From Sodiomyces alkalinus F11 (Eukaryota > Ascomycota > Sordariomycetes > Glomerellales > Plectosphaerellaceae), in the NCBI RefSeq assembly GCF_003711515.1, contig NW_021167086.1, positions 387,833 through 436,590 on the forward strand: a stretch of DNA of 48,758 nucleotides, written 5' to 3'. A model generated the notes under the pieces. It ran no database searches and was not told the origin of the DNA. It saw only the letters and a program-made list of their open reading frames with translations. The first letter of the stretch is position 1; every line of letters begins with the position of its first letter. Position numbers and translations under genes: made by a program. Of the stretch, positions 969 to 42,838 are shown in pieces.

Positions 969-1808
969 TCAAGCCCGACCACCCCCCGGTCCATGGTTTG
1001 CGGTATAGCCCTTCCCAGAGTAATACGAGCCGTTGGTGATCGTGGTGTTCCTGATCTGGACTCCATTTACGTTCCCATTATGGCGTCCCACCATCATCCC
1101 ATAATTCGTTCCCGCTGACACATTGGTATTTTGCAAGGTGGCCTTCTTCTCCTCGAGAGCCTGCGTCGCCGCCGCGAGCAGGTAAGGATCACAGACTTCA
1201 CAGTCTCTGATAACGTCCAATATTGTCATGAGTTCCCCAGACATTTCTTCACATTCCTCCCGGGTGAGCTCCTCGAGCTTGCTCTGCGGCTCGACCAGCT
1301 TCTCGAGTTGTTCGATGAGCTCCGAGATGTTCGTGATGAGGGCCTCGCATTGCTCTGTCTTGTACAATGCCCACTTCACACCCGAAACCTGGGTTGCCGT
1401 CTTACGGCACCTCTTCACCACCAGACCGCGGACTTTCCTTTGGAGGCGCCCGAATCGGTCGTTCGGGAAGGGGGCGTCGTCTGCGTTCCTTGGTTTCATC
1501 TTTTCTGATTCGTTCTTTGCCTTTATCAACGCATCCCTGATATGCTCGAGGAAGATTTCGGCTTGTTCGAGGTCTGATATTGCAGTGCTTGCCGGATCAC
1601 CTTCGGGGGACGAGGTGCCGGTGTTTTCCCCTTCGTTCTCAAGGGGAAGCCCTGCGGCTGTGGACCATCGAGAGAGCCGGAGCTGGGCCATGTCGAGTCT
1701 GAGCTGGTACAGCTTGAAATCATGTTGGAAACCTCGAGCGACTTGGATGGCACCAAATTCTTGAATGATGGTCGGCACCAGTGAGCTGATCGCAGAGACG
1801 GCTTCCAT
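969..1808 (-). CDS. HeLo-domain cell-death effector with C-terminal amyloid motif
   Basis: Single exon of 279 residues from an ATG at 1808 to TGA at 969. Residues 1-220 look like a HeLo (HET-s/LopB, prion-inhibition and propagation) domain: a hydrophobic N-terminal segment, then YQLRLDMAQLRLSRW near residues 34-48, and a KWALY helix with LITNISELIEQLEKL in the middle third. These are the conserved spots of that family. The length is close to HET-s (289). The last ~50 residues change abruptly to an Asn/Gly/Thr-rich tail with two pseudo-repeats 27 residues apart (NTNVSAGTNYG at 227-237, NTTITNGSYYSG at 254-265), ending with GKGY. This resembles a HET-s-related (HRAM) or sigma-class amyloid motif. 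HeLo domains of this family permeabilise membranes after the tail folds into amyloid. The divergent neighbour is a NACHT-WD40 receptor with a matching N-terminal motif. The fold assignment is firm from pattern; the activity is inferred from the family. Confidence 0.85.
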   Translation of the reverse strand: MEAVSAISSLVPTIIQEFGAIQVARGFQHDFKLYQLRLDMAQLRLSRWSTAAGLPLENEGENTGTSSPEGDPASTAISDLEQAEIFLEHIRDALIKAKNESEKMKPRNADDAPFPNDRFGRLQRKVRGLVVKRCRKTATQVSGVKWALYKTEQCEALITNISELIEQLEKLVEPQSKLEELTREECEEMSGELMTILDVIRDCEVCDPYLLAAATQALEEKKATLQNTNVSAGTNYGMMVGRHNGNVNGVQIRNTTITNGSYYSGKGYTANHGPGGGRA

Positions 1809-2450
1809 GGCGTTCCAGCTGCGCCTGAATATCGGTTCGAAGAAACTATGTCTTCTGTTCGAAGTCGTTGCTTCGTTTCTTCGCTGCTTCTTGCCAAGGA
1901 AGATTCGGGCCCCCCTCCCATTTTAATGGATTATACATCAGGCATTGCATGATGCATTGATAAGGGAGGCATCCTGAGAGCGGGGTAGTGCACATCGAGC
2001 TGGTCTTTGCATCAGGTTCCAAGGCGAGAACGCCCTACGGCCGGTGAAAGGGCCAACTGGAAACACACACCCCGCCAATAACAATGCCCTGCAGTTGGCA
2101 GCATTGGCCAGCATCTGCGGGCTGTGTCGTCTTGACCAATACCATTGTCTTTGGACCCTGCTGTGCCGGCCGTCTTGCGACCCACTACGAAGTACGTTCG
2201 TCTTGAAGATGAAGGGGGCGAGGCGAAAATAAGGCAACCAAAGACAGCCCAGGCAGCCCAACTTACACAAATGAGAAACGGGCGCTTCAAGGTTCAACCC
2301 AGACTGTGGGAGGACAGCATTTCCTCTCCGTCCTAAGCAACTGTTCGACCAGAACGTTACCGACGAGTTGGCCTAGGTATAGGCATGACACTCGGGACCA
2401 TACCCCTGGGATTTCACCCAAGGAACCAGTCCGGCCGTGGAAACAATATC
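1809..2450. promoter_or_regulatory. Shared intergenic region between divergent HeLo effector and NLR genes
   Basis: These 642 bases separate the two divergent start codons and must hold both promoters, unless the receptor begins at the in-frame ATG at 2385. Open frames inside (for example 1938-2297, minus) have no family features. No clear TATA box or operator stands out. Physical coupling of effector and receptor promoters is typical of fungal amyloid-NLR gene pairs. Confidence 0.5.
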
Positions 2451-5400
2451 ATGGCCGAATCATCGACAGCGGCTTCGGCCCAGAGAGACTATGGGTTCAG
2501 GACTGACATGTTGAATGGGGATGTATCGAATCTTAGTAGGCCGAAACCTTGACAGCCCAACACCCGCGTTGTTCTGGAAAGAGGGAGCGAAAATACTAAT
2601 TGATTCTCTCAGCCTTCAACAACACTGCTACCACGAACAATTATAACACAACCGCGAACAATAATAGCGCACCTAGTACGGACGAGAGCGCTTTCCTCCG
2701 GGCCCTCCAAGTCGACCCTGGGGAACTCAAGACAGATGCTGAGAAATCTGTCCCTGGTCGGACCATCGACGAATGCTGGAACTGGATCCTTACCCATTCC
2801 ACTTTTGAAAAGTGGTCGGAAAGCCGTGGTACTCAACTACTCTGGATACATGGCGGTCCTGGGAAGGGGAAAACCGTCATGGCTCTCGGGCTAGTCGACG
2901 AACTTTACAATCGATCACGAGATCCACATGTCTTCCACTTCTTCTGCCAGAACATGAACGACAAAGCGAATACGGCCATTTCGGTTCTGCGAGGGCTCAT
3001 CCGTGGCCTGGCATTGAAACAGCGGCATCTTGTTATGCAGTTGCTGCGAGACAAATACCAATCGCCAGAGGACGTTGAGAAAGCTCCGTTAAAGAATCTT
3101 TGGGTTGATTTATTGGACATGCTCAAAAACCTCCAACTTGAGTCGTCTAAGTCGGTATATTTTGTGGTAGACGCACTCGACGAGTGTCGGGACGGGGAGG
3201 ACCTTCGTGACTTTCTCGACTGGGTCGAACGCGAAAAATTCGGGTCTTGTCCCTACTCTGTCAAGTGGCTCTTTACCAGTCGCTTTTCGGACGAATTCGA
3301 CAGTCGTATAGGGCCGGGGAGAGAGAGGTTGGCCATAAACCTAGACATACTGAAAGATGTGCGCGACGGCGTGCATAAGTTCATCCAACAGGTCATGAAC
3401 GGCCGAACTCGGCGCAAATGGAATAAATCTACGCAGGAAATCGTGCGTGGCTTTCTCCGGAAACGCGCGGAGAGCACGTACATCTACGTCGCCATCGTTT
3501 GGAAGGAGATTCGGCACCTCCCGGAACCGAAAGTCCTCGAACGGCTGAAGAGGCTAAAGCAGGGCGGTTACAGCGATGAGCTCTCTCGGGCATATAACTT
3601 TATGATGAGCCGACTTATGAAGAAAGATAAGGGCGACGGAAATAAACGGCGTCAGGAGATACTTCGCGTCGTGCTTCTCGCGAAGCGGCCCCTCGGATTA
3701 GAGGAACTAGCGATTGTCGCCGATCTTCCGGAGGCCGCCGCCACGCCCGACGACGACGACGACGATGACGATGACAATGATCAGTGGTACGGCGATGATA
3801 ACGACCACTACGACGACCACTACTACGACGATGATGACGATGCCGACGAACAGGACGACGGCCACGACGATGAACAGAACGACATGCCTGTGATTACTGA
3901 ACTCATCCGCCAATGCGGTCATTTCCTGGACCTTCGAAGTGGCAAAGTTCACATCTTTCACAGGTCAGCCAAGGACTACCTCATGACGTTAGCAACGACG
4001 ACAACAGCGACAGGGACAGCGACAGGGACAGGGACAGCAGCAGCAGCAGCAACAGAAAACAACGATATTGGACAGGCGTTTTGGTCGACTCCAGTTCCTT
4101 TAATCCATGACGCGATTGTTCGGCGTTGTATTGCTGCCATCCGCTCAACCTCAGAGATTCGCAAGTTCCCTGACATCAATTCCGTTGTCTATAGGCGGCC
4201 ACCAGACGGCGAAATCAAAAGGTTTCACGACACAGCGTACCCGTACGTTTATTGGATCTCTCATGCCATCGAAGCTGGGGGTCAGTTCTCAGAAGATGCA
4301 AAAGCAACGGTCGAAGACTTCCTCCGAGAACATTTCCTCCCATGGGTAGAAAGGACGGCGTACTTGAGGGAATTATCGCATTGCATAAATCCGATCCGAA
4401 GGCTGTCGAAAGCGTCGAATTTGTCAACCGGATCAATTGTGTCCAACGAGACATCGGAGCCCCGGGTATTGCAAGGGCAGTCGGAAACGAGCACCAAGGC
4501 CGAGGCATCGCTGCAAGGTCTGTTGTATGATTCGTTCCGGTTTCTCCTTCAGTACAAGGACATCGTTGAGCACGACCCTCCCCAGGCATACTTTCTGGCC
4601 ATGTTTTTCTCGCCGACGAGATCTTTGGCTCGTCAAAACTTTCGGGAACGGGTCCTCTCGTCGTGCTGCGTCAGAGTAATAATGAATGAATCTGGATCTG
4701 CATTCGGGGAACACTGGGGCCCTTACTTGTACTCAATCAACAAAGCCAGCTACGATTGGGGCGAATGTCGCGAAAGCCATACGGGAGACGTCCCTCTGAG
4801 CGCGTCCTTTTTTGGGAAGAGACCGTACTTTTCGAAACACCTGGGCTTCTCGAAAGATGGAAGCACCATCTTTGCGACTTCTGACCGAGGCAGGAACATT
4901 TTGCGGTGGTATACTGAGGACGGGAGGGTTGCCAGATCCTTCGAGTTGCATGAGGAGGAGATTGCAGTTTCAAATCACGGCGATCTAGTGGCGTCCGTGT
5001 CTCCCGAAAACGAGAACAAGATTAACGTGAGGGAGGCGGAGACCAATAGCCTACGCTGTTGCATCGACATCCCGTCTACCGTTTTTACCGCGTCGTTTTC
5101 TCCTGATGGGAGGATCATCGCTATGGCGTTCATCGAGGAGAATATCACCCACGATTCAGCAGACTACCTCATCGGGCTGTGGGATTCCATCAGCGGAGAC
5201 CTCCGGGGAGAGATCAGGTTGCCGGAAATGAACAGCGTTCCTCGTCTAGCCTTCTCACCAGATGGCCGCAGGCTAGCCATAGGAGGCAACTACCCTACTA
5301 GCCTGACTCTTTATGACACGGAGACGCAGTCCATCCGTTTGGACCGACGATTCCAGCTCGAAGAGGGATCCCTCCTCTTCAGAGAGAAGGATAAGCTCCT

Positions 5401-7180
5401 TGAAGAGAGGGATCTGCACTTCGAGGGCTTAGGTTATATAGAGTCTGTCGTCTTTTCCCCGCGTGGAAGTGTACTTGCTTCCCTCCACTGGTTCAAGTTT
5501 ACTAGTCTCGTGCATGCTATGTCCGGCGTTTCCTTGTGGAAACATGCGTCGGATTGGGAGTCGGAAACGAGCGCGCAGGTGATACATTTGATAAGCAAGC
5601 ACGACTGTATAAAAGCAGTCGCTATTTCACCAGACGACAAGACAATAGCATTGTGTTTCCGGCATTCTATTGCGGTTTTGGGTCTAGATGTAGAACTCCC
5701 CTCTCCTTTTTGCTTTCCCCCCCAACCCCGGATCTGTCCTGAAAAGCCAATTTCCAAACAAATTCACTAACAAGCTTTTTTTTAGGAACTTTTCGATACG
5801 AACCTTGCAACGGGGAACGCGATACTCGTAGAAGGACAATTCAAGAGGCCGGGAGATTATAGCAGCTCTGTAGCCCAATCACTCACGTTCTCGCCTTCCG
5901 GAGAATTCATCGCTTGTGCGTCTAGTAACGGTCTGATCAGTATATGGGATGGGCATGTGTTGTCTTGGCCCCAGTCAGACCGCGAGCAACAACCTTTACC
6001 ACCGACAAGGGGTCTGATGTTTTCCCCGGACGGCCGATTATGTGGCTCTAGCGTCGCAGGTGGCCAAGGTGAGGGACTCGAACTATGGGACACGGAAAGC
6101 GGTTCTCCCAAACTGAGCCTCGCAGGCAGGTCGTCCTTTGTGGGATATAGGAGGTTGCCATGGGGCTTTTCATCGGACAGTACGTTTGCCATTGGTGTTC
6201 TAAATCAGAAATTTGTTCTGGTGAACACCGCAGACTTCTCCCATCTCACCTTGTCCGGCGTCCAAATGGACCAATGGGCCGACGACGAATTCGATTTTCT
6301 ATTGACTCACCGCATTAACATTCAATTCGCTTTCAACCATCAGAATACACTCCTAGCATTAGCCACTAGAGGGTCCAATGTGTATATTTTCGACACGAAA
6401 TCCGGCTCTCTGCGACACTCTCTGACGGCTAAAGACAAAATCCAATACATTTCCGCGGTAGCCTTTTCCCGCACAGGACGGCTCATTGCAGGAGGAGAAG
6501 AGGGAAGCTTGGTCATTTGGGACGAGCCATATACCAGCGCCTACGTCTCCTGCGATATGTCGCCGAGTTACACGAACTGGCGGATAACCAAAATCGCCTG
6601 TTCACCCGACGGGGAGGCAGTTGCTATTGCCTGGTCACCACTCCTTCATGGGGTCTCTCAGCCCCGTGGCGGCGGCGGCGTTGCCCTGGGCACGATCGAT
6701 GGTTCTGGCTCATGGGTTTCCTCGGGTCCTGATTTCGCGGCTAGGGAACCTCCGACGCGGTCTAGGGTACCCTCTGCCCTCACCATCTCAGATGAGGATC
6801 ACGTCGCCGTGGCTTGGAAGGATATGAGTTCCGCCGTTATGATCAAAATGGCCCGAGGTTACTTTGTCCTGGACGTGGAGGAAGACGGCGGCCGTCATAT
6901 TCACTTTGGGTCCAGGCTTGTCAACTCGTTGGCTTTTGGGTCCGGAAACAGATCCATAATTATAAACGGGATGGAAACTTGCCTGCCCGTTGCAAATGAA
7001 AGCAGGGACTGTATCTTGACGATGCAAAGTCGTCGGAACTACAACTGGGCTGTTTGGAAAGGTAATCCGGTCGTGTGTATTCCCCATACGTTTAAGGTTT
7101 GTTTAACGGCGTCCTGGCATAAGTGTCTCGCCATGAGAGACGAAATGGGACGTATTTTGTTTCTTCATCTCGATGGATAG
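2451..7180 (+). CDS. NACHT-WD40 NOD-like receptor (STAND ATPase), 1518 aa, three exons
   Basis: Exons 2451-2535, 2613-5689 and 5786-7180 join in frame (4557 bases). Intron 1 (77 bases, donor GTAGGC, branch ACTAAT, acceptor CTCTCAG) and intron 2 (96 bases, donor GTAGAA, branch CACTAAC, acceptor TTTTTTAG) were placed by eye. A start inside exon 2 would have to use TTG. An in-frame ATG at 2385 is an alternative. Residues ~12-39 are an Asn/Gly-patterned motif aligning without gaps to the effector tail. NACHT: P-loop GGPGKGKT at 109-116, Walker B FVVDALDE at 212-219, then a sensor-like WLFTSRF. The helical/winged part is interrupted by a ~45-residue acidic tract (about 408-454) and a Thr/Ala-rich tract (about 490-510). 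From ~residue 770 to the end come degenerate WD40 blades (FSPDGR, AFSPDGRRLAIGG, LWDSISG, FSPSGEFIACASS). It would sense a ligand with its beta-propeller, oligomerise through NACHT and seed the effector. Ligand unknown. Confidence 0.88.
3749..3888 (+). repeat. GAC/GAT-rich trinucleotide tract coding a poly-acidic insert in the NLR
   Basis: Imperfect GAC/GAT codons encode a stretch dominated by Asp with some Glu, His and Tyr. It sits between the end of the NACHT-associated helical region (RPLGLEELAIVADLPE) and the conserved CGHFLDLR...HRSAKDYL block, which are normally nearly contiguous in this receptor class. It is an in-frame expansion and does not break the gene. Confidence 0.8.
3994..4050 (+). 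repeat. ACA/GCA-rich tract coding a Thr/Ala-rich insert in the NLR
   Basis: Degenerate runs of GACAGGGACAGC-like units followed by GCAGCAGCAGCAGCAACA encode Thr, Ala and Gly directly after the conserved SAKDYL segment. This is the second low-complexity expansion inside the receptor and also keeps the frame. Confidence 0.7.
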
Positions 7181-7855: not shown

Positions 7856-9451
7856 TCACCCTCGTTGAGGCGTCCGGCCAGGCGTCCCCGGCACGAAAGG
7901 GTTCCCCCTCCTCACATCACCCAGCTGCGCCTCCTCCATAAGATCCGTAAACGTAGTCCCGGACGTGAACCGCTTCATCTGAGGCGGCTCCAGCCCCATG
8001 ACCCCCGCCGAAGGGTTCCCCTGCTGACCACCCCGACTACTACTACTACTACTACTCGCCACGGTGCCCGGGTCCGCAAACACGTTGATGCTCTCGCTAC
8101 TCGGCTCGCGCTGCAACCTGGGCGTCACCGGCCTGGTGTCCGTAGGCGTGGCGGCTTCGAGCGCGGCCTCCCGCGGCGCGAGTCCGCCGTCCCCCCAGTA
8201 GCCGCCCTGGTTGATGGTCGGCTTCTGCTGGTTGCGCATGGTGCGTATGGGCGGGATGGTGATGCTGGGGCGGGGGTTGTGGCGGTTGGTTGTCGTCATG
8301 GTGGCGTTGGTGAGGGTTCGGGTGGGGATGCGCGGCGGACGGGCACCGCGCTGGGATCCGTGGGTGGAGGTCGACCCGAGGTTGGGACCTCCACTGCTGC
8401 TGCTGCTGCTGTTGTTGCTGTTGCTGCTATTGCCGAGGAGGTCTCGCGGGACGACGGCCGTCGCGCCGCTTAAGTTGAGGGAGTCGCGGCGGGAAAGGGA
8501 GCTGAGGCGCTGCGACGCGCGCGAGTGGCGTTCCGGGGTCTTGAGGATGAAGTCGGTACGCAAGGCGGACTCCTCCCTGGGGATGGGGTCGGAGATGATG
8601 TGGCCGAAGGAGGAGGTGGACGAAGACGCCCGGAAGAGCCGGCCACGGCCGAAAGGTTTCTTCTCGGTGAAGGCGCTGGTTGCGTTCTTCTTCTTGTTGC
8701 GGCGTCGAGCGAGGTACATGAAGACGGCTACCGCGGCTGCGACGAGAAGGAAGACGCCTGCGAGGACACCCACGACGACGGGGGCCGTGGGAAACGGATC
8801 ATCTTCCTCGTCGTCGGCGTCGCCACTATCATCATCGCCGCCTTGTTGTTCTTCTGCATCCGGTTGTGGGGATGTTGAGGGAGCTGACGTGGGCGTGGAC
8901 GCGGACGTGGATGTGGAGGTTGTAGTGCCGCTAGTCGTCGATTCAGAACTAGAGGTGGTGGTTGATATTATAGACGTGGACGTAACGCTCGACATCGATG
9001 TCCGAGTAGTGGACGGGCGTTCGGAAGCCGGCCGCTCAGAAGGCCGCTGGGACTGGTCTTCATCCATGTCACACAGCCCCTCGTCATTGCAGGTGTAGCC
9101 GAAGGGGCAGCAGTTCTCGCCGCACCTGGGAAGCTCGGCATCCAGGGCTGTGGTTTTCAGTTGTCGTTGGGGGTATTCGCTGGGATCTTGGAGGCTGACG
9201 TTGCAGGAGATGGCGGTAAACTGCTTGCACGAGTCGTTGGGGCAGCAGACCACGGTCGAACCGCCGGCGAGGAAGAGGCAGGTTCTGCCTTCGGCGCAGC
9301 AAAGACCTTCGTCGAGCCCACCGCCGCATTGCCGGAAGTTGTCGGCTCCGCATATTGCAGTGTCGTCACGTTGAAAGATGGAGGGGATAGATGCCGCCCT
9401 TGCTGAGGCGAGCCAGACGAGCAAGAGCACTCTAGCTCTTGATCTCGACAT
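7856..9451 (-). CDS. Cys-rich, Ser/Thr-rich single-pass plasma membrane protein
   Basis: The first true ATG is at 9451; the open frame upstream of it starts only with TTG. The 531-residue product opens with a signal peptide (MSRSRARVLLLVWLASARA). Residues ~25-135 hold 14 cysteines, including pairs LCC, VCC and a CCPFGYTC motif. Next comes a Ser/Thr-rich stalk (~140-200), an acidic patch, one transmembrane helix at about 220-246 (VVVGVLAGVFLLVAAAVAVFMY) and a basic stop-transfer RRRNKKK. The ~280-residue cytoplasmic tail is rich in Ser, Pro and Asn with several Arg-Ser/Thr sites. This layout matches fungal cell-surface proteins with Mid2/Wsc-like topology, but the Cys pattern is not the WSC domain. 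A sensor or adhesin role is inference; no enzymatic motif is visible. Confidence 0.8.
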   Translation of the reverse strand: MSRSRARVLLLVWLASARAASIPSIFQRDDTAICGADNFRQCGGGLDEGLCCAEGRTCLFLAGGSTVVCCPNDSCKQFTAISCNVSLQDPSEYPQRQLKTTALDAELPRCGENCCPFGYTCNDEGLCDMDEDQSQRPSERPASERPSTTRTSMSSVTSTSIISTTTSSSESTTSGTTTSTSTSASTPTSAPSTSPQPDAEEQQGGDDDSGDADDEEDDPFPTAPVVVGVLAGVFLLVAAAVAVFMYLARRRNKKKNATSAFTEKKPFGRGRLFRASSSTSSFGHIISDPIPREESALRTDFILKTPERHSRASQRLSSLSRRDSLNLSGATAVVPRDLLGNSSNSNNSSSSSSGGPNLGSTSTHGSQRGARPPRIPTRTLTNATMTTTNRHNPRPSITIPPIRTMRNQQKPTINQGGYWGDGGLAPREAALEAATPTDTRPVTPRLQREPSSESINVFADPGTVASSSSSSSRGGQQGNPSAGVMGLEPPQMKRFTSGTTFTDLMEEAQLGDVRRGNPFVPGTPGRTPQRG

Positions 9452-12400
9452 GGTCGAGATGGTTTGAGAGAACAAGAAAAAGGAAAAAAGAAGAAAAAGG
9501 CCGATAATGCCGTGCTAATGTTTCTGAGAAGTGTAATCCCGTTGCCGTCGAGGTTATTTCTTGTTCTTTTCTCGGATGAGTAGCGCAAATAAAGTGTTGT
9601 CGGCTGTAACGGCGGTTGAAAATCGAGTCAAGAGTGTCGCGTACCAAGTTGCTGTGAGTATTCAAGAGTCGGTATGTGATATGAGAAGGACGAGGCAGTC
9701 CAGAGAAGATCGCCGTAAGTACAATGACCACGAGCAGAACAAAGGCGTAGACGTGCAAAGAATGTTGTCGGCGCACAACACTGAACAATGCCCTTAGACG
9801 TCAGAACACAGAACTAAGAAGAAGAGGTTGAAGTCGTTTCGTCGGGCAGATGGAGATCTGAAGTTTCGTAGTTGGGCGGTCCCTTGAACAAAAAGGAATT
9901 CGAAGCAGCGAGGCGTTTTGTGTGATCCGTCACGATCAAAAAGAAACCGAAGAAACAAGAATGAAGAAGAGGGATAATGGATGATAGAATGACAATGATG
10001 GTATCACAGAGTCTTCACACCCACATCCGATGGAAAACTGGAATATAGGGGAGGAAATGAGAAATGGAAAATTCTGATATCATCGGGCACCAGTCACTCC
10101 ACGCGGGTCGACGCTGGCCGACGCGCTTCGATCAAAGACTCAGAGCGCCCAAGAGACCAAGAGCGAGCGCGAGAAGAGGGAGCCCAGTCAAGGACATGGG
10201 CATCTTACGGGCCACAGCTTTTCCTTGGTCCTAGGTCCATCGTGCGCAACGATCCCATTCTTCATGCGGAAGCGACTGGCGGCTGCCGGCTGACGGGGTA
10301 CAAGGCACAGGGCTGCATCCGCGAGGTCGCAGAGTAGGTCCGCTCAAGTCCAACCAAGCGTCTGGTCGGCGGCAAGGCAGAGACTTCACGGAGGAGAGCT
10401 TATTACCAGAAGCTGGATGATGGAGAGCACCGACTGGTCTGTAGGATGCCGCTTTGCTGGAGACGACCGGCTGGGGCTTCCAGGGTCCACGGCGGAACTG
10501 GAGTCAACACTTGCATTCCTTGATCTGGAGGGCTGACCCGCTGGAGAGGATAGGAAGAGATGTGTGCAAAGAGATGTTCAGCTCCCACCACACGTCATCG
10601 AGCAGGAAGACGAAATACAACCGACTGGTTCCCTGGGCATTAGAAGATGAAGACTGGAGGACGAGGCTGTGTTGGAAGATGCCGGAGAAAGAAGGCAGTT
10701 GAACGAAATGAGAGGATGTCATGGAAGCGCCAGGCTCATGTCCTGTCATCGGTTTGCCGCCCTCTGAGCCAATAGTTCGTGAGAAACATTGGGCCGGCGT
10801 TTCGAAACAAAGAAGAAAGGAGTCTACAAAGGATGGTTGTTGTTTCATTGTGTGTTGAACGTTGAACAAGTCGGCGCCACGACTGGTGACTGGAGAATGC
10901 CAACAGCTTGGTACGTGTTGCTCCATAGCCGCGCGCTGCGGAAACGCGCATCGCTGATTCGCCGGCGGCTTGGTATCAAATCGTGCTTAATACACCCTTC
11001 TGATTGGCTATTAGTTCTTCAGTTGCCCCACAGCTTTTGTCATCCTCAAGCCCCATATCGGTCATGAGTGCCACACCGGATTACGTGATAAACCGGATAC
11101 ATCCCAGCCACCTTTCCTTCAAAAGTACCCATGGAGTCACCTGACTTCTAGTCGAGTCACAAGACCACCAGCAAGCCAGGGCAAGACGCCAAGAGACAAA
11201 AGGGAAGATGGAAGATCAGCATCACCACCAGCCTCCATCCAATTATGCTCCTTTCTCTCTCTCTCTCTCTCTCTCTCGCAAATCGCGGTCAAGCCCGCCC
11301 CAAACCGGCGCATCGTGGCTAATTCATAATTCCAATCCACGAGCAAATCGCATCGCAAATCCGACCTCTGCTCGACCTGACCAGGGCCCCCCCAAATAAC
11401 CCCCCTAGTTCGACAGGGTCCTTCGCCCACTGTACGACCTCTGCAACCGCATTCGCTGGCCCAGCGATGCCCTAACCTTCTAGCGTGACTTTGTAGAGAG
11501 CCGATTCTGCCCACCGCCCTCTAGTATCGCCTTCGTTCACGGGTTCACGGGTTCACGTGGGTTCTCGCCCGTTTTCTTGCGCTCTTGTGCATGGAATTAC
11601 AATATGTCTCGACTTCGCCCCCTCTTGGCCTGTTTCAAGCTCGTTCTCGAGGACGCCGGCCACGGGACGGACGATGCACTACCTACTCTTGCATGGAGCT
11701 ATCTCTGAAGGGCTAGAATGTGTAGAGGCGTAATAACGAGGCGAGGCGGTGAATTTCAAGATGCACCCCCCCCTCCCCGTGACGGTACTTTGTATGGTGA
11801 TCTCTGCTTCTGACCGATCGTGAACCGGTAAACAGGGAAGGACGAAGCAGGAATGGCATGAGGACGATACCTGGGAACTGACCTAACGAAAAACCTGCAT
11901 CTTGTCTTTCCCTTGAGCCCCCTCTTCGAACCTACCATAGCCGACTGCCGCCCTCTTGTGAGCATTCCGCTATCCGAACGTCGAACTGTCCTGTCCGCGG
12001 CCATGGACTTTCGTGTTTCTTCCGGGAGACCGCAGTCTCCCCCCAACTGAACAGAATGCAGAACAAGCCTGCATTGTAGACAGTCCCCCCTGTGCTGCAC
12101 TATTCCGGCAGTGAAGTCTCGTATGCGTATGGTTACAGTGGGTGCATGAATGGCAGGGTGCCATCTACCCGTCTGTATTGTAGGGCTCTGTAGCCGTAAA
12201 CCCGCTGTAGCGGCCTGATCTTCCTCAGTCTCAGGGGGATCTACGGTCAGGACACCGGAGATCGACATGTGGGCAACATTCACATCCACCATTTTGCCTA
12301 ACCCCGAGGATGATCAGGTATCACCAGAGAAGAAGTGCACAGTTGGTTTGAAGAAATCTGCGTTTCTTATTCCTATCATCTAATCGACCGCAGGAGGAAC

Positions 12401-39045: not shown

Positions 39046-39772
39046 TCAAAAGTGCACCGGTCCCAGCCCCCTCTCCTTCACAGCCTTCTGCACCTCCTCT
39101 TTGACCTCTCCAACCGCCTGCTTCCACACCTGCTTCCCAACTCCGTCAGACGGGTCCGCCCCAACGAGGAACTCGAGCCACTGCACCAACTTAACGGCCT
39201 TATCCATATCCCGCTCCTCCAGCACCACCCGCCCGAGATACTTCTCAAACACCTGCACGTCCGCCCTGTGCGGCCCATCGTCCTTCGACTGCCCATGCCA
39301 CGCCTCGAGCATGTCCTTCACCTCCCCCCCCGTCCCAGCGAACGAGATCCTCCGCGGCGGCGCCGGAAACCGGAGCGTCCTCGGCCCCCGCCTCCGCCCC
39401 TCGTCCGCCTCCGCCCCCACCTGCCGACGTCGTCCCGGCGCAGGCTGGAAATTCAGCCCCGATTTCCGCGCCAGGCGCCTGCGCCGATGATCTTCCAACA
39501 CCTCCCGCCGGACGTCCTCGGGCAGTTCGGCCAGGATTTCGGGATCCAGCTCTTCCGGCTCTTCTTCCTCCGTCGCCGGTCCCGCACCGTCTGCCCCGCC
39601 GCCGTGACGGTTCCGTCTTCGGATGGGAACCAAGCTGGTCTGCGTGCGGCGTGCGGCCGCGTCTTGCTGCCGCTCGCGCGTTTTGCTCCACATGCCCCTG
39701 ATGCCTCCCCCTCCCCGTTTCGTGGGCGTCGTCGGCTTCCTCGGTTGCATCTGCCTGTCTCGGCGGGGCGAC

Positions 39773-39848
<76 letters not shown>

Positions 39849-42838
39849 GCGGTGGCGGTGGCGGTGGCGGTGGCGCGCTCGGCCCGGCGGGTCTTCGCCC
39901 ATACGACGCGAGCACCTCGGCTTTCATGTCGTCGGGCAAGGCGTTGAACACTTCCGGGTCGACCTGCGAAGGGAGCTCGTCTAGGACGGCGGGGCTGTCG
40001 CTTCGTGATCTGGACACGGGGGACTCCTGCCTGGCGAACCATTGTGGCCGCGGCTGAGGCTGGGGCCGCGCTTGGAGTTTGGCCCTGATGTCGCTGGGTA
40101 GTTCTGCGAGAACGGCGGGATCGACTTGCGACGGAAGGGTGAATTGCGTGCCTGTAATATTCAGCGGCGTCGTGGCTCTTGCGTCGTTCTCTCCGGCCTT
40201 GGCAATCGCCAGGGCCGGATGGACAGCCGCCTGCCTCGGTCTGCGAGGCGTGAGCGGATCATCTGCGATGGGGTCCTGAGCCATGCCATGAGCTGGAGAT
40301 GTCCTCTTCTTCTTCCTCGTTGGGCTGCTTTCCGAGTCTTCGATTGGGTCGATTGGGTCAGATCTCGCTCGTTTGATCGACGACCGGCTGTCTGCGATAG
40401 GTTGTCGTTCTCCCGCTTCTTCGATCGGATCGCCACGAGACTTTCTCGCCGAGGGCGGTGCATTGAACGTGGGAAACGCTAGCCGTGTTTGGCTTCCGTC
40501 GACGGCAGATGAGGATCCCGCCTTGACAGGTTCCAGTTTGGTCAACTGCAGGCCCAGACCTCGCAGGTCCCCGGGACTGAACTTGAAGGACCGAAGTATC
40601 GACACGGCTTCCTTCCCGATCGTCTCTGCGCTGTTCGTCGCGACCCCGAAAACGGCGCTCTTGTTGAAGGTATCGCATTTCCCATGGCCCAGGTGTTTCG
40701 CCGGGTCCAAGGGCGCATCGAGTGACCGCCTCATGATCTTCATGGTAAGCTGCTTGCCTTTGACCTGCTCGTTGACCAGTCGGCGCTCCAGCTCCTTGCA
40801 GAGGTTCATGACGAACTCCTCCGCTTCCGCCTGGCTGATGAAGCGAATGCCCCAGTTCACCTCCGCAGACACTGATTTCCGGGGAGGCTGTTCTCCGACC
40901 TCGCTACGATCGATGCCGCGGGCGTATTCCCATAACTTCTCCCCCGTCTTGGGGCCCAGTGTCGACGAAAGCTTCTCCTTCGAGACCTGCCGGATATCCT
41001 TTACAAACTTGACCCCGATCTCTTCAAGCTTGCCGCTGATACTGTATGCCACGCCGGGTAGATCCTTCACCTCGAGATCGCCCAGCATGTCGAGAACCGC
41101 TTCCGGCTTAAGCTGAAATTGTCCCGCAGGTTTGGCTCGTCTGAGCGCCACCTTGGCCTGCAGGATATTGCCGCCGATACCAACAGAGACGTCGCACCCC
41201 GTTTTGACTTTGATGGTGTCCCGAAGATGGAGGGCGATTTCATCAGCGGCCGCCTGTTCTCTCCACACACTTCCCTCGTCCACGCCGGTGCCGGTAGAGC
41301 CCGCGGCATCGTAAATCACACCGGTCACGTCCAACAGCGCCTCGTCGACGCTAACACTCTGCACAATGGCGCCGACTTCCAGGATGGCTTGGTAGAAGTG
41401 CCGGCTCGCCTCTTCATACCCCGGGAAATCGTAGGGCAAGACTTTGAGCTCCGGGCAAAGCTCCTGGGCTCTCTTCATCCAAATGCCGTTCTTCACCCCG
41501 AATTTGCGCGCGGGGTAATTGCAGCTTGCAATCTCGGAGCCGCCCCCGGCGCTGTGGGCGACCGCTGCGGGTTTCTCTGCATACTCAGGGTGTTTCTTCA
41601 ACGATACCGCACAGAAGAAGCTGTCGAAATCCACGTGGAGGACATAGCGCCGAGCGCCCGGTTTCCTTTTCGCCACCTTGGCGGACGACTCTTTCTCTTT
41701 TGCCAGCCGCTGCATTCGAGATTTCAGCTCCGCTTTCCAGGTCGAGAGGTGGTGAAGGCGACTCTCTGAGTAGAACTGCTTGAGAAAGTCGGGGTTGGCC
41801 GTGGATGATTTTCGAATGCGGGGATCGGAGAGCAGCCAAGCATTGTGTTCTTCCGGCGTCATTTGTTCGGGCTTCTTCCCGCTCGCTTTCTTTTCTAATT
41901 CTGCTATCCTGTCGACATTTGGTGTGACGTTAGAATGAGGTGCTGCAGATGTAACCACCTCGGAAGACATTTGTCCACTGGGCGGCTTGGTATTGCCTTG
42001 CGCCATGTCTACGCCGGGATGCATGTCTTCGAAAATGGCATCGTCGAAATCATCATCGATATCTTCCATGTCAGCCAAGGATTTCTTCTTTGCGCTGGGC
42101 CATTTCTCAGTGGGCGGAGGTGGACTCGTCTCGAAACTGGGACCTGCAGGCTGGCGAGAGGGCGTGGCAACAGACGTGACGCCGGATGGCCCGTTCAGTT
42201 GACTCGTGTAAAAGCTGTTGTCGCTCTGTTCCCGATATCCCCGCTTGCCATTCGGAGTCGCCTGGCTAGATAGGCTGCCCTGATCAAACTTGAGAACCTT
42301 CTGTCGTGCGCCTTCTTCCACCACGCGGTAGTCGGTCCAGGGCAAGAGCTTGCCGGCTTCAATGGAATCCACCACCCAAGCCGGCTTCACGATTCTGTAC
42401 CGGCTATAGTCTAGCGACTTCTTTGGCGGCAGGGCAGACGCTATGATATGCGTCGCCATCGTCTTGGAGTCGAGATACTGAAGGAAGCCGGCTCCATGTT
42501 GCACGAGTTGGCGATGTAGTCTAAACAAGTGTTGGTGATAAAATCCAACACCACGGTGAGAGGGCGAAGATGTGACGGGTGCCGACTCACATATGTAATG
42601 GAGGTTGGGTATAGCCCATGACATGAGCTACGATGCCCTTGAAGATCTGCGGCTTGTCGGAAGACGCTGCGCGGAGGCCTGCGTCCAGATTCTGCAGCTT
42701 GAGCTTTTTCCTCCTGAAGTAGTCGCCGAACCCTCCAAACTCGCTTCCTTCGTACTCTTCGCCTTCTTCGTCGGTGAAGGCATGGTTCTCGATCCGCTTC
42801 CTCACTTGAGAGGAATTCTTTTCCAGACGACTGCCCAT
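39046..42838 (-). CDS. REV1: DNA repair protein Rev1 (Y-family deoxycytidyl transferase)
   Basis: Exons 42591-42838 and 39046-42520, intron of 70 bases (donor GTGAGT, acceptor TTTAG, phase 2) inside the BRCT domain; 1240 residues. BRCT at about 60-145 (IFKGIVAHVMGYTQP, HGAGFLQYLDSKTMATHIIAS, KPAWVVDSIEAGKLLPW). Y-family polymerase core from ~375: VDFDSFF carries the first metal-binding Asp near residue 380, then SCNYPARKFGVKNGIW and SVDEALLDVT near 471. The thumb and little-finger parts follow (SVGIGGNILQAKVALRRAKP, LPGVAYSISGKLEEIG). Three UBM-type ubiquitin-binding motifs, each D-P-x-[VI]-[LF]-x-x-L-P, lie near 881-898, 936-952 and 1074-1091, with a poly-Pro/poly-Gln tract between the second and third. 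The last ~100 residues are the Rev1 C-terminal domain that binds other translesion polymerases. Nuclear translesion synthesis across damaged or abasic sites. Confidence 0.96.
39772..39849. repeat. CAA microsatellite coding 26 Gln in Rev1
   Basis: On the plus strand CTG followed by 25 perfect TTG; on the coding strand 25 CAA and one CAG. It encodes 26 glutamines at about residues 974-999, directly after a poly-Pro stretch made of CCA/CCG codons. Confidence 0.95.

What the first reader, a model, noticed from the sequence alone, without database searches (positions are those of the whole stretch)
969..7180. Divergent HeLo effector and NACHT-WD40 receptor sharing an N/G amyloid-type motif
Seen: the 279-residue HeLo protein ends in an Asn/Gly/Thr tail, and the divergent receptor, with its spliced first exon, begins with a segment that aligns to it without gaps. 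Effector 235-259 against receptor 13-37 shares Y236/Y14, G237/G15, N244/N22, G245/G23, V247/V25, N254/N32, T255/T33, T258/T36 and N259/N37. Known: in fungi, HET-s/NWD2-type pairs pass a death signal by amyloid templating between such motifs, and the genes are adjacent. Inference: this is an amyloid signalosome for incompatibility or immunity. The effector tail also ends in GKGY, like the anchoring loop of HET-s. The motif may be an HRAM variant, a sigma-type motif or a new class.
Basis: partly seen in the sequence, partly recalled or inferred. Interest (0 to 1): 0.87.

Follow-up and report, generated by a model that had tools for sequence, protein, structure and literature searches.

The report
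Divergent fungal cell-death signalling gene pair
Two neighbouring genes in the soda-lake fungus Sodiomyces alkalinus look like an immune sensor and a cell-death protein that share a short protein tag of the amyloid-signalling type, a known kind of fungal pair whose tag has here drifted far from its usual form.

Summary
A 279-aa HeLo protein (969-1808, minus) and a NACHT-WD40 receptor (2451-7180, plus, three exons) diverge from a 642-bp gap in Sodiomyces alkalinus F11. The effector tail aligns without gaps to the receptor N-terminus over 33 residues (BLOSUM62 56; reached by 0 of 5,000 receptor shuffles; best unrelated of 2,542 local segments 43). The public gene model has the same first splice junction. 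The 10 effector relatives found keep the tail; 9 of 10 carry NxGxQxGxNxG, the PP motif core (Pfam PF17046). The tag is thus PP-derived and single-copy, not HRAM, sigma or a two-rung HET-s tail; GKGY is in none of the 10 relatives' tails. In this pair the central Gln is gone from both partners (effector GMMVG, receptor GFRTD), and neither terminus matches PF17046. A profile of the relatives' tails does not find the receptor. Best reading: a split HeLo/NLR amyloid-type death signalosome with a co-diverged PP-derived motif. Amyloid formation is untested; the main rival is decay of the tag. New variant of a known kind.

The parts
969..1808 (-). HeLo-domain effector, 279 aa, one open frame; HeLo at residues 4-192
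   Evidence: ORF; PF14479 E=2.1e-25; sequence match to HET-s HeLo crystal structure 2wvo E=6e-13
1032..1130 (-). Effector residues 227-259: C-terminal PP-derived motif (NYGMMVGRHNGNV core, then NGVQIRNTTITN)
   Evidence: Ungapped match to receptor 5-37, score 56; best-conserved of four segments compared among 10 relatives
969..1031 (-). Effector residues 260-279 with GKGY, plus stop codon: terminal extension, hardly conserved in relatives
   Evidence: Mean majority fraction 0.19; GKGY in 0 of 10 relatives' tails
1809..2450 (.). 642-bp divergent intergenic region (576 bp if the public upstream start at 2385 is used)
   Evidence: Coordinates
2451..2535 (+). Receptor exon 1 (28 codons + 1 nt) with most of the N-terminal motif (DYGFRTDMLNGDVSNL)
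   Evidence: Translation; same junction in public model P0012
2536..2612 (+). Intron 1, 77 bp
   Evidence: GTAGGC..CAG, CTAAT branch-like site; junction as in P0012
2613..5689 (+). Receptor exon 2: end of motif, NPHP3_N/NACHT with P-loop GGPGKGKT, start of WD40 region
   Evidence: PF24883 E=3.3e-35, NACHT PF05729 E=2.3e-7 (open frame 2600-5770); P-loop at residues 109-116
5690..5785 (+). Intron 2, 96 bp
   Evidence: GTAGAA..TAG, CTAAC site; joined residues GLD-ELF as in P0012
5786..7180 (+). Receptor exon 3: WD40/beta-propeller region to stop
   Evidence: Open frame 464 aa; beta-propeller Pfam matches in 5957-7180; public model ends differently after residues SSD

Best explanation
A two-gene fungal cell-death signalosome of the split (in trans) HeLo/NLR kind. 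The NACHT-WD40 receptor has no recognised effector domain and carries instead a short N-terminal motif. When a ligand meets the WD40 region (inferred), the NACHT oligomerises and brings these motifs together; they fold into a cross-beta template that converts the homologous C-terminal tail of the HeLo protein next door, which then attacks the membrane and kills the cell. Shown here: the domains, the adjacency, the splicing logic, the shared motif above chance, and the descent of the effector tail from the single-copy PP motif family. Inferred: ligand sensing, oligomerisation, amyloid templating, pore formation, and a role in immunity or non-self recognition. The motif of both partners has diverged from the PP consensus, with the central Gln lost in both.
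For: HeLo E=2.1e-25 and NPHP3_N/NACHT/WD40-type matches; HET-s HeLo structure match 6e-13; divergent neighbours. Shared termini: score 56, 0 of 5,000 receptor shuffles, 1 of 5,000 with both shuffled; best unrelated segment 43 of 2,542. Receptor N-terminus beats shuffles against 10 of 10 relatives' tails, 0 to 20 of 3,000 each (the tails are homologous, so not ten independent tests). Tail is the best-conserved segment of the relatives (mean majority 0.81 vs 0.69 in HeLo); 9 of 10 have the PP core; PF17046 found in 8 of 10 whole relatives at E<=1, all below the cut-off, and in 6 of the 8 tails given alone at E<=0.0042, one above the cut-off. PF17046 is the PP motif (PMC12261475, passage). In the effector 4 of 4 motif glycines (237, 241, 245, 249) and 6 of 8 hydrophobic positions (228, 230, 238, 240, 242, 247, 250, 252) are kept, counted from the columns. 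A short first exon before an intron is also how Podospora PNT1 carries its PP motif (PMC7885112, passages). No Pfam match in receptor residues 1-51 at E<=10, so no other effector domain recognised there.
Against: The profile of the 10 relatives' tails gives the receptor 1.3 bits, E=160, below many shuffles, and the effector only 13.3 bits, E=0.03. Neither terminus of this pair matches any Pfam model at E<=10. The core Gly-phi-Gln-phi-Gly is GMMVG in the effector and GFRTD in the receptor. Of the 11 columns of 227-259 that are invariant in the 10 relatives the effector keeps 6 and, in the ungapped register, the receptor 3 (counted). The effector lost two hydrophobic positions (228, 242). No receptor of a relative was found that shows the motif on the NLR side (4 candidates, none at E<=10). 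AlphaFold2 of the effector is low confidence (mean pLDDT 39.9). Amyloid formation is untested. Published S. alkalinus isolates grown side by side formed no barrages, though the mycelia did not fuse (PMC5706713, passage).
Confidence: 0.67

Rival explanations
1. The pair descends from a PP-type signalosome but the tag is decaying: the amyloid step has been lost, and the resemblance of the two termini is a remnant.
For: The effector equals the relatives' majority at 54% of HeLo, 44% of linker (193-226) and 36% of tail positions, although the tail is what the relatives conserve best; core Gln lost in both partners, second core Gly lost in the receptor, 5 of 11 invariant columns lost in the effector; no PF17046 match.
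Against: Both genes are otherwise open, with intact P-loop and a HeLo match over most of the profile; 4 of 4 glycines and 6 of 8 hydrophobic positions kept in the effector; the closest relative P0002, with a largely family-like tail, also has Met for Gln; the receptor scores higher with the effector of this pair (56) than with any relative's tail (39-51).
Confidence: 0.21
2. Both are functional, but signal by a non-amyloid homotypic contact between the termini.
For: The receptor tag lacks the amyloid core Gly-phi-Gln-phi-Gly.
Against: The three Podospora systems of this architecture described in PMC7885112 (NWD2/HET-S, FNT1/HELLF, PNT1/HELLP; passages) work by amyloid templating.
Confidence: 0.05
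3. Unrelated neighbours: the shared Asn/Gly/Thr string is compositional coincidence, and the HeLo protein and NLR do not work together.
For: Profile of relatives' tails misses the receptor; the exon-1 part alone scores within background (36); short N/T-rich stretches are easy to align.
Against: Composition-preserving shuffles reach the score in 0 to 1 of 5,000; position (effector C-terminus, receptor N-terminus, adjacent divergent genes) is what the known kind predicts.
Confidence: 0.07

Closest known systems
PP-motif signalosomes: HELLP/PNT1 (Podospora anserina), HELLP/SBP/PNT1 (Chaetomium globosum), HeLo/STAND pairs of Arthroderma (passages of PMC3321046, PMC7885112, PMC5485727)
   Same: Split effector and NLR in adjacent genes; single-copy motif at effector C-terminus and NLR N-terminus; 9 of 10 relatives of this effector carry NxGxQxGxNxG; short first exon with the motif, as in PNT1
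   Different: Central Gln lost in both partners; receptor also lacks the second core Gly; relatives' tails have a further conserved stretch (KGLTFGTGNTITHQW-like) after the core; effector is HeLo (PF14479), not HeLo-like as HELLP; receptor is NACHT-WD40, not NB-ARC-TPR as PNT1; no third gene (SBP-type lipase) recognised, within the limits told in the report
HET-S/NWD2 (HRAM1) of Podospora anserina
   Same: HeLo effector, divergent NACHT-WD40 NLR, N/G-rich matching termini
   Different: Effector motif is single, not two 21-residue repeats; no HRAM pattern, no PF11558 match
sigma-motif systems (sesA/sesB/het-eN, Nectria haematococca)
   Same: Shared termini between effector and NLR; an intron in the 5' region of the NLR gene
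   Different: No GxGxQF or GGTQN sub-motif in the two termini
HeLo followed by NACHT, twice in the same genome (L003/L013 and L004/L012), read here as single-protein HeLo-NACHT NLRs
   Same: Same two domains
   Different: Effector apparently in cis; joining of the two open frames by an intron was not modelled

Membership tests
HeLo domain proteins (PF14479) | Profile match over the curated cut-off | tested here: met
   90.2 bits vs cut-off 23.2; HET-s HeLo structures 2wvo/2wvn/2wvq matched
Fungal NACHT-WD40 NLR (NWD family) | NACHT/NPHP3_N with P-loop followed by WD40 repeats | tested here: met
   PF24883 122.1 bits and PF05729 31.2 bits, over cut-offs; WD40-type matches mostly below their cut-offs, PD40 PF07676 over (24.2 vs 20.9); P-loop residues 109-116
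Split HeLo/NLR amyloid signalosome | Adjacent genes | tested here: met
   Divergent, 642 bp apart
Split HeLo/NLR amyloid signalosome | Homologous motif at effector C-terminus and NLR N-terminus | tested here: met
   Score 56, 0-1 of 5,000 shuffles; 10 of 10 relatives' tails also above shuffles; but the profile of relatives' tails does not find the receptor
Split HeLo/NLR amyloid signalosome | Motifs form and propagate amyloid and activate the effector | not testable with these tools
   Needs wet test
PP motif (PF17046) | Core NxGxQxGxN with central Gln, on both partners | tested here: not met
   Effector NYGMMVGRH, receptor DYGFRTDML; no PF17046 match. Met by 9 of 10 effector relatives, so this pair is called PP-derived and not filed as PP
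PP motif (PF17046) | Single copy in the effector | tested here: met
   One copy by alignment in effector and relatives; one strict core each in 9 of 10 relatives' tails
HRAM (HET-s related amyloid motif) | Two 21-residue pseudo-repeats in the effector with Gly19 and hydrophobic 5, 8, 10, 16, 18 | tested here: not met
   0 matches in effector 201-279 and receptor N-terminus (strict and loose residue sets) and in the 10 relatives' tails (loose set), pattern of my own coding from PMC4518210; no PF11558 match
sigma motif | Three-fold GxGxQF / GGTQNINT sub-motifs | tested here: not met
   None in effector 201-279 or receptor N-terminus

The most novel reading that the evidence does not exclude
A PP/RHIM-class death signalosome whose two partners have together left the Gly-phi-Gln-phi-Gly core: effector and receptor tags co-diverged into a Gln-free motif that still propagates, giving a private signalling channel insulated from ordinary PP motifs. 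The Met-for-Gln change is shared with the nearest relative P0002, so this may be a small lineage of Gln-free PP motifs with the extended LTF..NT.T rung as its real core.
Probability: 0.27. Interest if true: 0.65.

Novelty: new variant of a known kind. Interest (0 to 1): 0.5.

Why it matters
The central Gln is what PP motifs share with animal RHIMs and is said to centre the PP pseudo-palindrome (PMC7885112, passages). A natural pair that lost it in both partners while keeping the pairing would show which parts of such a motif carry templating and how two proteins change a shared amyloid code together. It also places an amyloid-type pair in a soda-lake alkaliphile, strain F11 being one of 4 of 18 isolates that carry mycoviruses (PMC5706713, passages).

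Tried and rejected
HRAM, sigma, HET-s anchoring loop: rejected. NLR partners of relatives: one search gave 4 candidates, none at E<=10; the receptor's own search gave 3 hits, one the same gene and two NACHT proteins in whose sequences I saw, by eye, no such N-terminus. Relatives in bacterial/archaeal and viral contigs: none confirmed by tblastn. Solved structures: 0 matches for the relatives' tail profile; the effector tail alone gave ThreeFoil (E=0.021, three weak stretches) and LYAR (E=1.2), judged chance. Weak Calponin-repeat matches, all below the cut-off, in 4 of the 8 relatives' tails, judged chance. Structure: AlphaFold2 of the effector at mean pLDDT 39.9 from 11 sequences; its strands at 238-243, 246-252 and 255-258 are no evidence at that confidence, so no fold search was run, and the second structure job was not used. 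Codon identity: 7 of 9 identical residues use the same codon, simulated P 0.015 from codon usage of effector and receptor exons 1-2; post-hoc, not used as evidence.
Full report
What is there. The window is from Sodiomyces alkalinus F11: the public protein P0012 is identical to the receptor over the 150 residues searched, including the first splice junction (lineage). The effector gene (969-1808, minus) encodes 279 aa with a HeLo domain (PF14479, E=2.1e-25; HET-s HeLo structure 2wvo, E=6e-13). The receptor gene (plus) has exons 2451-2535, 2613-5689 and 5786-7180 and encodes 1,518 aa with NPHP3_N/NACHT and WD40-type matches (one search scanned the open frames 2600-5770 and 5957-7180). The first Met of the exon-2 part comes after the P-loop and unspliced exon 1 runs into a stop, so a complete NACHT needs an upstream exon. 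The public model starts 22 aa further upstream and ends differently. I do not know whether that model rests on transcripts.

The shared motif. Effector 227-259 and receptor 5-37 align without gaps at BLOSUM62 56. None of 5,000 receptor shuffles reached 56 (best 52), and 1 of 5,000 did when both were shuffled. Among 2,542 six-frame segments of 30 aa or more (191,646 aa, loci then held and the window) the best score apart from the effector's own frame was 43. The match spans intron 1, so it exists only in the spliced product; the exon-1 part alone scores 36, a score that about ten unrelated segments equal or exceed.

Where the motif comes from. The protein search gave 11 hits: the query itself and 10 relatives, all with HeLo over the cut-off. 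Their tails align with the effector tail, and the tail is the best conserved of the four segments compared: mean majority fraction 0.81 at effector positions 227-259, against 0.69 in HeLo, 0.64 in the linker 193-226 and 0.19 at 260-279. Nine of 10 have NxGxQxGxNxG, the PP core as printed in PMC3321046 and PMC9815663 (passages). PF17046, which PMC12261475 calls PP 'misnamed SesB' (passage), is found in 8 of 10 whole relatives at E<=1, all below the cut-off, and in 6 of the 8 tails I gave alone, one of them above the cut-off (the tails of P0002 and P0006 did not match, those of P0008 and P0009 were not given). The effector and receptor termini of this window have no Pfam match.

How this pair differs. 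The core reads NYGMMVGRH in the effector and DYGFRTDML in the receptor. The closest relative P0002 (54% identity) also has Met for Gln: NHGIMVGVN. The effector equals the relatives' majority at 54% of HeLo positions, 44% of the linker and 36% of the tail, so, leaving aside the poorly conserved end 260-279, it departs most where the relatives are most constant. Counted from the columns: the effector keeps 4 of 4 glycines (237, 241, 245, 249), 6 of 8 hydrophobic positions (lost: 228, 242) and 6 of the 11 columns invariant in the relatives; the receptor, in the ungapped register, keeps 2 of 4 glycines, 5 of 8 hydrophobic positions (Ala at 230 counted as lost) and 3 of 11 invariant columns. Gapped, the receptor N-terminus beats its shuffles against all 10 relatives' tails (0 to 20 of 3,000). 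That is support from outside this genome, though the tails are homologous to each other. The opposite result must be told too: a profile of the same 10 tails scores the receptor at 1.3 bits, E=160, worse than many shuffles, and the effector at only 13.3 bits, E=0.03.

Context. Three HeLo matches were found in the genome, a lower bound. The other two lie directly upstream of NPHP3_N matches on the same strand. In each the HeLo frame ends 18 to 80 bases before the NACHT frame begins, with a stop or a frame change between. I read them as single HeLo-NACHT genes joined by an intron, but did not model the join. No PP-like core was seen in these loci. So the present effector is the only one of the three without a NACHT right behind it on its strand. 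Searches with the effector tail, the receptor N-terminus and a relative's tail found no further copy in the genome, but the first look needs shared words and the tool warns that an empty answer shows nothing. No third partner was recognised: the 10 kb upstream lists 8 open frames of 120 aa or more, all ending by base 2,914 of L032, over 7 kb from the window (not scanned against families, and genes of short exons would be missed). Of the 29 long frames of the window I scanned eight downstream ones, which include a Zn-cluster transcription factor, a SAM-PH protein, an F-box protein, a mitochondrial carrier, REV1 and a RED-like protein, two having no match.

Mechanism and confidence. Domains, adjacency, splicing logic, shared motif and PP ancestry are shown. 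Ligand sensing, oligomerisation, templating and membrane attack are inferred from the studied pairs (PMC7885112, PMC5485727, PMC3321046, passages; PMC4518210, parts 1 and 2 of 5). I put 0.67 on a working split signalosome, 0.21 on decay, 0.05 on a non-amyloid contact and 0.07 on coincidence. In checking the draft I lowered the first from 0.70 and raised decay from 0.18, and lowered the novel case from 0.30 to 0.27, because a full count of the tail columns showed two lost hydrophobic positions and five lost invariant ones. S. alkalinus isolates formed no barrages in one paper, where the mycelia also did not fuse, and virus transfer by contact from F13 and F18 to F7 was not detected (PMC5706713, passages); this neither shows nor excludes incompatibility.

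Literature limits. My paper searches listed no paper whose title or abstract start deals with NLR or HeLo genes of Sodiomyces (capped lists, for instance 12 of 223 and 15 of 10,194), and PMC9815663 does not name the genus in its main text. I found no statement on PP motifs lacking the central Gln in the passages read; supplementary files and figures were not available.

Noticed in passing
L003 1402-3477 with L013; L004 1276-3461 with L012 (G000 C7 and C11): HeLo frame directly followed by a NACHT frame on the same strand, twice: probably HeLo-NACHT genes in cis, the one-protein counterpart of this split pair. The join was not modelled.
   Followed up: partly
window, about 3748-3890: Asp-rich low-complexity stretch (runs of GAC/GAT) inside the receptor between NACHT and WD40 regions.
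   Followed up: no
window 6180-7180: Public model P0012 leaves the open WD40 frame near 6180 and ends early, although the frame is open to 7180.
   Followed up: partly
L018 1501-1776; L021 1501-1923: NPHP3_N matches with in-frame stops (2 TAG + 1 TAA; 1 TAG): possibly broken NLR copies, or introns read through.
   Followed up: no
window 39046-42627 (-): REV1-type translesion polymerase with a long poly-Gln run.
   Followed up: no
window 7856-9475 (-): Protein with a Ser/Thr-rich stretch and one membrane-like stretch by eye; no Pfam match at E<=0.001.
   Followed up: no
A2 (relatives' tails): Relatives keep a further conserved stretch, KGL[TS]FGTGNTITHQW-like, after the PP core; by eye the receptor's LTF..NT.T fits it better than the effector of this window does.
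   Followed up: partly
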